From positions 806,001 to 870,000 of the forward strand of contig NZ_CP032683.1 in NCBI RefSeq assembly GCF_001304615.2: 64,000 nt of DNA, in the 5' to 3' direction. Below the pieces are notes generated by a model, which had not been told where the DNA came from, searched no databases, and saw only the letters and a program-made list of their open reading frames with translations. A program made the position numbers and the translations under genes. The stretch is from Methanosarcina flavescens. Its GTDB lineage: Archaea > Halobacteriota > Methanosarcinia > Methanosarcinales > Methanosarcinaceae. Positions 44,708 through 48,029 of this stretch are shown piece after piece (position 1 is the stretch's first letter; each line of letters starts with the position of its first letter).

Positions 44708-45214
44708 CGTGGTAAATCTCATTTAAATTGAAATATACATTATTTAATTTGGAAAATATATTAATTAATATTTAAATGAGAATATTATATTTATTCTTTT
44801 CTTGAAAAAACGAAAAATAGTTTACGGCATTTACAGTGTAAAGCTGCATGGTACTGCTAAGCCTATAAATAATTTTCCATTTATTTATTGATTATAAAAT
44901 TATAAAATTTGAAATATAATTTAAAATTATATTTTCTCCTAAACGATAAGTTTTGTTTAAGGATAAGACTACTATTTGGTAACAAATATTCATAGAATTT
45001 TTTGTTTTACAAGTGAATAAAAAGACTAATTAGTAAGAAATAGTAACACTAAAAAAGAAATTATCAGCACTGCATAGAATCTTAATAGAAAACCAGCATC
45101 TAAAGCCTCAAGTTTAGTTTTTGTATAACGGGATTAAATAAGTTTTTAGAGTATACCGATTTCGAATATTCCATTTTACCCTTCTCGAAATGGCATGCTA
45201 CAAATTAGAAAATG

Positions 45215-45221
45215 TTATATA
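45215..45221 (+). promoter_or_regulatory. cdh operon TATA box
   Basis: TTATATA flanked by AATG and GATTTGG. Transcription would start about 25 bases on, near 45240-45246. That leaves a leader of roughly 370 bases before the cdhA ATG at 45615, in line with the long leader known for methanosarcinal cdh genes. Confidence 0.7.
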
Positions 45222-45267
45222 GATTTGGTACGTTAAGACATTTAATTAGTGTTTATTATCCATCGGT

Positions 45268-45321
45268 AGCGACCCCGTCTTAGGATTGAGGTCTCGATCG
45301 CTGGTAAAAACGGTTTTTTTT
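45268..45321 (+). promoter_or_regulatory. First leader hairpin plus oligo-T run
   Basis: AGCGA (45268-45272) pairs with TCGCT (45298-45302). GACC (45271-45274) with GGTC (45290-45293) is an overlapping alternative. About 10 bases after it, GG is followed by eight T residues (45314-45321). Hairpin plus T-run resembles an attenuator. Confidence 0.55.
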
Positions 45322-45424
45322 GAGAAGAAAAGGGCGTAAAAAAGGTTTTGAAGAGTGTTAAAGCCCTAAAAACGACTTTACAAAGAAATATTCCCTCTAA
45401 AAACGGTTCTATTTGAAAAAAACG

Positions 45425-45474
45425 CTGATAAAATGCTTAATTGTTGGAAGAAATAGTTAAAAGCATTTTATCAG
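45425..45474 (+). promoter_or_regulatory. 14-bp perfect stem-loop in cdh leader
   Basis: CTGATAAAATGCTT (45425-45438) and AAGCATTTTATCAG (45461-45474) are perfectly complementary, with a 22-base loop. It lies about 140 bases before the cdhA start. It could affect transcript elongation, stability or a protein contact. Confidence 0.8.
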
Positions 45475-45614
45475 AGAAGCATTATTTAAACGATTGTAAC
45501 TTTAAAGGAGACGGCAGATACATAATTTATAATCATGAAGAATAAGCCGAATAATATAAATTGCAATCGTCTTGGTGAAGTCGACTTTAAACAAATTTAG
45601 GAGGTAAAGCTCAA

Positions 45615-48029
45615 ATGAGCAAACTAACTACCGGGAGTTTTTCTATAGAAGATCTGGAATCCGTTCAGATCACTATTAATAACATTGTAGGTGCAGCAAA
45701 GGAGGTTGCCGAAAAAGCAGAAGAAGCAGGTCCTATGGGTCCTACCCCCTTCCCCTCAATCGCTACATTAAGGGACTGGAGTTTTACACTGTTTGACCGC
45801 TATGAGCCGGTTTACACCCCCATGTGTGATCAGTGTTGCTACTGTACCTTTGGACCGTGTAACCTGGAAGGAAACAAGAGAGGTGCTTGTGGTCTTGATA
45901 TGAAAGGTCAGGCTGCAAGAGAGTTCTTCCTGCGCTGCCTCACAGGCTGTGCATGTCACAGTGCCCATGGCCGCCACTTGCTTGATCACATTATTGACCT
46001 TTTTGGCGGAGATATGCCGATTAACATGGGAGCTTCAAATGTCATTGCCCCCAATATTCAGCTTGTCACAGGTCGGCAGCCGAAGACCCTTGACGACCTC
46101 AAACCTATAATGGAGTATGTCGAGGAAGAGCTGGGCCAGTTACTTGCAACTGTACACGCAGGACAGGAAGCAGCAGCAATTGACTATGATAACAAGGCAA
46201 TGATGGCCGGATATCTTGACCATGTAGGTATGGAAGTTTCCGATATTGCACAGGTTACTGCACTCGGCTTCCCGAAATCCGATCCCGAAGCTCCTCTTGT
46301 TGAGACCGGCATGGGAACAATTGATGCTTCAAAGCCAGTTATTATTGCCATTGGACACAACGTTGCCGGTGTCACCTACATCATGGACTACATGGAAGAG
46401 AATGGCCTTGATGACAAGATGGAAATCGGAGGTCTCTGTTGTACTGCATTTGATATGACCAGGTACAAGAGAGAAGACCGGAAAGCCCCCTATGCAAAGA
46501 TTGTCGGTACCATTTCAAAGGAACTGAAGATCGTACGCTCCGGAATTCCGGATGTGGTCGTTCTCGACGAGCAGTGCGTAAGAGCAGACCTCGTAGAAGA
46601 AGGAAAGAAACTCAAGATTCCAATTATTGCATCCAACGAAAAGATCATGTACGGTCTGGAAGACAGGACCAATGATGATGTAGATGCAATCGTAGAAGAC
46701 TTGGTAAGTGGTAAGATCCCTGGCTGTGTGATGCTGGATTATGAAAAACTGGGAGAACTTGTGCCAAAAGTCGCTCTGAAGATGGCTCCAATCCGTGAAG
46801 CCGAAGGGCTCTCAGCCATCCCCACAGACGAAGAAATGAAAGTCCTCGTGTCCAAATGTGTAGAATGTGGAGAATGTGCACTTGCATGCCCAGAAGAGCT
46901 AGAAATCCCTGCAGCAATTGCAGTAGCTAAGGGAGGAGACTACTCTGCTCTGGAAGAACTGCATGACCTTTGTGTAGGTTGCCGCAGATGTGAGCAGGTC
47001 TGCAACAAGGAAATCCCCGTCCTGAACTTGATTGAGAAAGCTGCCCAGAAGGCCATTGCAGAAGAAAATGGTCTTGTAAGAGCCGGAAGAGGTCAGGTAA
47101 GCGATCCAGAGATTAGGGCAGAAGGCCTGAACCTGGTTATGGGTACGACACCTGGTGTTATTGCAATCATTGGATGTGCCAACTATCCTGCAGGTTCTAG
47201 GGATGTTTACAACATCGCAGAAGAATTCCTTAATAGGAATTACATTGTTGCAGTTTCCGGATGTTCTGCAATGGATATTGGCATGTACAAGGATGCTGAC
47301 GGCAAGACCCTCTATGAGAGATTCCCGGGCAGATTCGAGAGAGGTAATATCTTTAACACCGGATCATGTGTTTCGAACGCTCACATTTCGGCTACATGTC
47401 ATAAGGTTGCTGCAATATTTGCAAGCAGAAACCTATCAGGCAACCTTGCCGAGATTGCAGACTATACACTCAACCGTATCGGTGCAGTAGGACTTGCATG
47501 GGGTGCATACTCTCAGAAGGCAGCAGCTATCGGTACCGGATGTAACATGTTTGGTATTCCTGCAATAGTCGGTCCTCACAGCGGTAAATACAGGAGAGCC
47601 CTGATCGCAAAGACCTATGATGAGAACAAGTGGAAGGTTTACGACAGCAGAAACGGTTCAGAACTGGCTATTCCACCAGCTCCGGAGTTCCTCCTTACCA
47701 CTGCAGAAACCTGGCAGGAAGCCTGTGTTATGCTGGCAAAGAACTGTATCCGTCCGTCTGACAACAACATGGGCAGATCTATCAAGCTCACCCACTGGAT
47801 AGAACTAAGCGAGAAGTATCTTGGTGTTATGCCGGATGACTGGTGGAAGTTTGTCAGGCACGAAGCTGACCTGCCTCTCTCCAAGCGTGAACAACTCCTG
47901 AAGATACTTGAAGCCGAGCACGGATGGGAGATCGACTGGAAGAAGAAGAAGATCATTTCCGGCCCGAAGATTAAGTTCGATGTCTCTTCGCAGCCAACTA
48001 ACCTTAAGAGACTTTGCAAGGAGGCCTGA
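45615..48029 (+). CDS. cdhA: CO dehydrogenase alpha subunit of ACDS
   Basis: The 804-residue catalytic subunit of the acetyl-CoA decarbonylase/synthase complex that interconverts CO and CO2. The N-terminal [12 protein letters not shown] and downstream Cys residues bind clusters D and B. Two ferredoxin-type motifs, [12 protein letters not shown] (near 414) and [11 protein letters not shown] (near 453), are typical of archaeal CdhA and absent from bacterial CooS. Conserved Cys in G-C-S-A-M-D, G-S-C-V-S-N and G-T-G-C-N-M bind the Ni-Fe C-cluster. Start ATG 45615 follows TTTAGGAGG. First gene of the operon. Confidence 0.98.

What the first reader, a model, noticed from the sequence alone, without database searches (positions are those of the whole stretch)
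45215..45614. Long structured cdh leader with two hairpins and a T-run
Seen: a TATA box at 45215-45221, then about 370 bases before cdhA. The leader holds a hairpin followed by eight T residues (45268-45321) and a perfect 14-bp stem (45425-45438 with 45461-45474). Known: a long 5' leader with an effect on expression has been reported for cdh in Methanosarcina. Inference: the first hairpin plus T-run looks like an attenuator. The second could be an RNA-binding or anti-terminator structure that tunes acetate-dependent expression.
Basis: partly seen in the sequence, partly recalled or inferred. Interest (0 to 1): 0.6.

Follow-up and report, generated by a model that had tools for sequence, protein, structure and literature searches.

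The report
Methanogen cdh leader with antisense-target 5' end
The long, folded start of a methane-making archaeon's acetate-enzyme message is real and widely conserved, and in relatives with two copies of the enzyme operon its first 18 letters are the exact complement of a repeat-derived RNA-like element beside the other copy, which points to RNA-to-RNA control between the two rather than a simple terminator switch.

Summary
A TATA box (45215-45221) precedes a ~371-nt leader of cdhA with a 5' stem-loop (P1), a T8 run and a perfect 14-bp stem (P2); the leader folds 3.9 SD better than shuffles. It is conserved in 29 of 31 genus genomes. P1 is almost invariant, occurs once per genome, and only before the acetate-type cdh operon in three related genera. 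P2 covaries. A regulatory cdh leader is already published (Anderson 2009), so that part is known. The attenuator reading is weak: a 9-nt spacer separates P1 from the T-run, and three lineages lost the T-run but kept P1. New: the first 18 nt (45244-45261, starting at the predicted transcription start) are exactly complementary to a conserved, TATA-preceded, hairpin-forming element upstream of the second cdh operon in all 18 two-operon genomes examined. Three of these carry independent compensating changes. Uncompensated changes of the 18-mer occur in 0/18 two-operon but 10/17 other genomes. That element is a diverged member of a dispersed inverted-repeat (MITE-like) family. The window's own species has one cdh operon and no partner. 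A trans-acting antisense RNA acting on the cdh leader is the best explanation; expression is untested.

The parts
45174..45198 (+). conserved box upstream of the promoter (TTTTACCC..CTCGAAAT..), candidate activator/repressor site
   Evidence: alignment of 29 genomes, conservation rises from 0.65 to 0.88-0.96 here
45200..45221 (+). BRE-like stretch and TATA box (TTATATA 45215-45221)
   Evidence: nearly invariant in 29 genomes
45244..45261 (+). 18-nt 5' end of the leader AATTAGTGTTTATTATCC: antisense target in two-operon relatives; starts at the predicted transcription start, its last two bases are the first two of the P1 stem
   Evidence: exact complement in 18/18 two-operon genomes, three compensated variants; no partner in the window genome
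45260..45304 (+). P1 stem-loop with conserved mismatches; single copy per genome, only before this type of cdh operon
   Evidence: CM R1: one strong hit in 29/31 genus genomes and 35/112 family genomes; pairs formed in 96-99% of cells without covariation
45314..45321 (+). T8 run, 9 nt after P1
   Evidence: T>=7 in 26 of 29 genus genomes, lost in L111, L114, L115
45307..45424 (+). four AAAACG repeats (45307, 45369, 45400, 45419) kept in register
   Evidence: 3-7 copies in nearly all leaders (one in L114 and L115) against ~0.5 in dinucleotide shuffles; repeats found
45331..45367 (+). P1b: AGGGC (45331-45335) with GCCCT (45363-45367)
   Evidence: 97% of cells paired, one pair with a two-sided change
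45425..45474 (+). P2: perfect 14-bp stem, arms 45425-45438 and 45461-45474
   Evidence: two-sided changes in 6 of 14 pairs across the genus; z = -6.8
45491..45569 (+). P3: CGATTGTAA (45491-45499) with TTGCAATCG (45561-45569), inner CGGC/GCCG
   Evidence: 94-97% of cells paired, 3 pairs with two-sided changes; also present before other cdhA copies
45578..45604 (+). AAGTCGACTT palindrome and ribosome-binding site AGGAGG (45599-45604)
   Evidence: nearly invariant; the ribosome-binding site is shared with second cdh operons
45615..45671 (+). first 19 codons of cdhA under constraint at synonymous positions
   Evidence: codons 1-17: commonest synonymous codon 0.948 against 0.56-0.80 from codon 35 on
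45615..48029 (+). cdhA, first gene of the cdh operon controlled by the leader
   Evidence: ORF list; identified by own knowledge of CODH/ACS sequences and genus-wide homologues

Best explanation
The region is the 5' leader of the acetate-type cdh (CODH/ACS) operon of a Methanosarcina: a ~371-nt regulatory RNA with a fixed 5' module (18-nt 5' end plus P1), A/U-rich linkers with AAAACG repeats, P2, P3 and a constrained start region. In relatives with a second cdh operon, the 18-nt end is the target of a trans-acting antisense RNA made from a domesticated inverted-repeat (MITE-like) element upstream of that operon. The element displays an 8-nt loop (AAACACUA) that can start pairing with UAGUGUUU at about +4 to +11; full pairing spans about +1 to +18 and takes the first two bases of the P1 stem, so it would open P1 at its base. 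The likely outcome is a change in early elongation, stability or 5'-end processing of the cdh message, coupling the two isoform operons. Shown: conservation, complementarity, compensating changes, promoter-like TATA of the element. Inferred: transcription of the element, pairing in cells, and the sign and level of control. In the window's species the partner is absent, so only the cis part of the leader can act there.
For: Leader conserved over 400 nt in 29/31 genomes. P1 once per genome, only before one cdhA. The 17-mer complement is exact upstream of second cdh operons. In 18/18 two-operon genomes a copy matches the genome's own 5' end at 18/18 positions, including compensated variants in G022, G023 and G038. 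Own-pair energies -24.6 and -26.8 against -16.2 to -20.7 with other genomes' copies. No other 18-nt window of the leader exceeds 15 matches (12 genomes). Proximal copies drift while the distal copy stays exact. Uncompensated target changes 0/18 two-operon vs 10/17 others, Fisher p = 1e-4, not corrected for relatedness. The element has conserved BRE/TATA and a long outer stem, and exposes the loop. Complementarity begins at the predicted transcription start, as expected for RNA. A published review says expression of the two isoforms is theorised to be regulated post-transcriptionally too (PMC4652020).
Against: No expression data: neither the element's RNA nor the duplex is shown. The 18-mer is still exact in several single-operon species (window genome, G029, G009, G012, G014), so it must have another role or the partner was lost recently. 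G022 and G038 are sisters in the tree, although they carry different changes. Some single-operon calls come from incomplete genomes. In the element the ends of the 18-mer are paired within its own hairpin.
Confidence: 0.6

Rival explanations
1. Transcription attenuator: RNA polymerase terminates at the T8 run (45314-45321) on non-acetate substrates and reads through on acetate, with P1 and P2 as regulatory structures.
For: A review of Anderson 2009 names early termination as one of two options. T>=7 is kept in 26 of 29 genus genomes. Archaeal termination can occur at U-tracts without a hairpin (own knowledge).
Against: 9-nt spacer between P1 and the T-run and no terminator-like site by rule. 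T-run lost in L111, L114, L115 while P1 is kept. No conserved competing anti-terminator fold found.
Confidence: 0.3
2. The shared 18-mer is a binding site of a DNA-binding regulator, placed at the start of the acetate-type cdh operon and, inverted, upstream of the second operon.
For: Also kept in some species without the second operon. Several copies in an array would suit a regulator.
Against: Identical compensating changes in three genomes, and in G022 and G023 not in the proximal copies, would need co-evolving binding specificity. The match ends at the predicted transcription start. The sequence is not palindromic.
Confidence: 0.2
3. P1 plus the linker is a protein- or ligand-binding leader element (stability element or metabolite sensor), independent of any antisense RNA.
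For: P1 sequence and mismatches nearly invariant over three genera, more than a plain stem needs; single copy; confined to lineages with this operon.
Against: No Rfam family matches. No ligand or protein can be named from sequence. Does not explain the covarying 18-mer; may coexist with it.
Confidence: 0.35
4. The 5' end folds back on the start codon of the same message (UGUUYAU with AUGAGCA) and hides it.
For: Predicted in the consensus fold; 99% of cells pair.
Against: The start-codon side never varies; the changes in G022 and G023 break a cis pair but keep the trans pair.
Confidence: 0.1

Closest known systems
Methanosarcina cdhABCDE 5' leader (Anderson et al. 2009, J Bacteriol 191:7123)
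   Same: Same leader type in the same genus; a long 5' UTR with an effect on CODH/ACS expression according to PMC3600222.
   Different: The original paper is not held and could not be read. As far as the held text shows, the mechanism was left open; the genus-wide P1 and covariation analysis and the trans 18-mer are additions here.
M. mazei sRNA41 acting on ACDS (cdh) messages (Buddeweg 2018)
   Same: An archaeal trans-acting RNA controlling the same enzyme complex.
   Different: sRNA41 is described as masking ribosome-binding sites; here the target is the extreme 5' end. The sRNA41 sequence is not held, so identity with the element was not tested.
M. mazei sRNA162 / sRNA154 (trans-acting archaeal sRNAs)
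   Same: Trans base pairing with messages in Methanosarcina (PMC3510493, PMC5867862).
   Different: Target and locus differ; the element here sits in tandem copies next to a paralogue of its target and derives from a dispersed inverted repeat.
Loop-initiated antisense systems of bacterial plasmids and transposons (own knowledge)
   Same: Loop of a structured RNA pairs with a single-stranded leader end.
   Different: Encoded in trans at a paralogous operon of an archaeon, not overlapping its target.

Membership tests
Methanosarcina cdh regulatory leader | long 5' UTR of about 370 nt directly before cdhA of the cdh operon | tested here: met
   TATA to cdhA distance and genus-wide conservation
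Methanosarcina cdh regulatory leader | substrate-dependent effect of the leader on expression | not testable with these tools
   reported for Methanosarcina in PMC3600222; not measurable here
intrinsic terminator-type attenuator | stable stem directly followed by a T-run | tested here: not met
   9-nt spacer; 0 terminator-like sites
intrinsic terminator-type attenuator | conserved alternative (anti-terminator) pairing | tested here: inconclusive
   consensus fold shows none; single-sequence alternatives not excluded
archaeal U-tract terminator | run of T conserved at the site | tested here: inconclusive
   T>=7 in 26/29 genus genomes but lost in three
Rfam family or known riboswitch | match to a covariance model at the curated score | tested here: not met
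   no match for the leader or for the cdh1-upstream element
trans-acting antisense sRNA and target | complementarity maintained by compensating changes | tested here: met
   18/18 two-operon genomes exact, three compensated
trans-acting antisense sRNA and target | own promoter and expressed RNA | tested here: inconclusive
   conserved BRE/TATA before each unit; no RNA data
M. mazei sRNA41 | sequence identity with sRNA41 | not tested
   sRNA41 sequence not found in the held papers consulted

The most novel reading that the evidence does not exclude
A dispersed inverted-repeat (MITE-like) element was domesticated next to a duplicated cdh operon into a trans-acting antisense RNA that pairs with the first ~18 nt of the other cdh operon's message and opens its P1 stem. 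It would couple the two CODH/ACS isoforms, while species that lost the second operon keep the bare target or let it drift.
Probability: 0.5. Interest if true: 0.85.

Novelty: new variant of a known kind. Interest (0 to 1): 0.72.

Why it matters
[quoted passage not shown] How Methanosarcina sets its level after transcription starts has been open since 2009, and how its two isoforms are coordinated since 2012. A precise 18-nt pairing with natural compensating mutants, and species that lack the partner, makes that question directly testable. It would also be a case of a mobile repeat turned into a regulatory RNA in an archaeon.

Tried and rejected
Upstream ORF attenuator: the ATG at 45535 opens a 21-codon frame but start and frame are not kept in the alignment (read by eye). 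Riboswitch/Rfam: none. AAAACG repeats as a genome-wide regulatory array: paired copies 10 against 6 for the reversed control, not convincing; function of the repeats in the leader left open. Cis pairing of the 5' end with the start codon: no covariation and broken in G022 and G023. Trans RNA for the start region: no long complement found in the own genome. Second cdh operons as carriers of P1: absent. Weaker R2 hits elsewhere as more copies of the antisense unit: the ones aligned are generic inverted-repeat elements without the 18-mer. Anderson 2009 and Matschiavelli 2012 are not held.

Full report
What is there. The window lies in a 3.28-Mb Methanosarcina genome (from its size and single cdh operon perhaps M. 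flavescens, own guess). The promoter of cdhA has TATA at 45215-45221. Using the ~23-bp distance stated for Methanosarcina in PMC11409679, transcription starts at about 45244, giving a leader of about 371 nt. It contains P1 (45260-45304), a T8 run (45314-45321), P1b (45331-45367), P2 (45425-45438 with 45461-45474, perfect), P3 (45491-45569), a palindrome, the ribosome-binding site and the start codon at 45615. The leader folds better than all 100 shuffles, z = -3.9.

Conservation. The 400-nt stretch is found at 69-96% identity in 28 other genomes of the genus, 29 of 31 with the window's own. Upstream of position 45155 the alignment is at background (0.65); promoter, 5' end, P1 and start region reach 0.9-0.99. 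A covariance model of P1 hits once in each of 29 of 31 genus genomes with E <= 2e-14; one further hit in G016 at E 0.12 is noise-level. In the family it hits 35 of 112 genomes, in 3 of 14 genera. It lies before only one type of cdhA; second cdh operons and the cdh operons of Methanolobus, Methanococcoides, Methanohalophilus and Methanomethylovorans lack it. The first codons of cdhA are also constrained at synonymous sites (0.948 for codons 1-17 against 0.56-0.80 from codon 35 on).

On the 29-genome alignment P2 has two-sided changes in 6 of 14 pairs and the whole structure beats its shuffles on most measures (that control ignores relatedness). P1 pairs in 99% of cells but shows no covariation because it scarcely varies, also when divergent sister-genus sequences are added. 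The T-run follows P1 only after nine bases, no terminator-like site is called, and the three genomes L111, L114 and L115 have lost the T-run but kept P1. Hence the classical attenuator is weakened but not excluded. The review PMC3600222 states that the mechanism in Anderson 2009 was likely either early termination or endonuclease cleavage.

The new link. Reading the leaders of second cdh operons showed the reverse complement of the first 18 nt of the P1-type leader. A pattern search across the genus found exact copies at the P1-type leader itself and in sense orientation upstream of the second operon; two to four units per genome were then read. These copies sit in ~200-nt units with a conserved BRE/TATA (GAAAACTATTTATA), a 12-bp outer stem (CTATCCGAAAAG with CTTTTCGGATAG) and the 18-mer in a hairpin whose 8-nt loop AAACACUA is open. 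The P1-type operon corresponds to M. acetivorans cdh2, judged from genome size and position (own knowledge); PMC12918732 calls cdh2 necessary for optimal acetate growth.

Tests of the link. In all 18 two-operon genomes at least one unit, always including the most distal one found, is complementary at 18 of 18 positions to that genome's own leader end. Three genomes carry changed target and unit together: G022 (one position), G023 (two positions) and G038 (one other position). In about two thirds of these genomes the proximal unit mismatches its target. Among the other 18-nt windows of the leader the best complement in the same upstream DNA is 14-15 (12 genomes). Targets that differ without compensation: 0 of 18 two-operon genomes, 10 of 17 genomes without a detected second unit (Fisher p = 1.1e-4). 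Caveats: related genomes are not independent, some single-operon calls rest on incomplete genomes, and the pattern of one and two operons needs about eight changes on the tree. G022 and G038 are sisters on that tree but changed at different positions. Operon counts were checked with CdhA.

Origin of the partner. A model of the units finds weaker dispersed relatives in every genus genome, up to 72 in one, 2 in the window genome. The ones aligned share terminal inverted repeats GAGCCTATCCGAAAAGT...ACTTTTCGGATAGGCTC and lack the 18-mer. The units therefore look like domesticated members of a MITE-like family whose interior changed until it matched the leader end.

Mechanism offered. In two-operon species the unit RNA would bind about +1 to +18 of the cdh message, starting loop to single strand, and take the first two bases of P1. 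The effect could be on early elongation, 5'-end stability or cleavage, or P1 recognition. None of this has been measured. In the window's species no partner with a close match exists, so the leader there can act only through its cis elements. The continued exactness of the 18-mer in several such species is unexplained: recent loss, or a second role.

Verdict. The leader as such is known; the trans-antisense link is, as far as the held literature shows, new, well supported by sequence evolution and untested by experiment.

Noticed in passing
G000:C1:932831-932962 (L241) and all genus genomes: A dispersed ~130-bp inverted-repeat (MITE-like) family with TIR GAGCCTATCCGAAAAGT, 1-72 hits per Methanosarcina genome at E <= 0.1; parent transposon not identified.
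   Followed up: partly
window 45615-45671: Codons 2-19 of cdhA are almost invariant at synonymous sites across the genus and nearly the same in second cdh operons, which suggests an RNA-level target extending into the coding region.
   Followed up: partly
window 45174-45198: Conserved upstream box TTTTACCC..CTCGAAAT, in some species a near-palindrome (CCCTTTTCGAAGAGGG in L103), directly upstream of the BRE: candidate regulator site.
   Followed up: no
L116 (G001:C1:5431800-5434938): Another cdhA copy in the M. acetivorans-size genome carries the 3' part of the leader (P3, palindrome, ribosome-binding site) at 82% identity without P1.
   Followed up: partly
L208 (G010:C20), 3121 on + strand: The distal unit is followed by a full ribosome-binding site and a 35-codon truncated cdhA start, a duplicated leader with a decoy start.
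   Followed up: no
window 45307-45424: AAAACG repeated four times in register in nearly all leaders, function unknown.
   Followed up: partly
G000:C1:1893119-1893201 (L120): An array of AAAAACG copies about 15 nt apart, outside the longer listed ORFs of that locus, gene context not clear.
   Followed up: no
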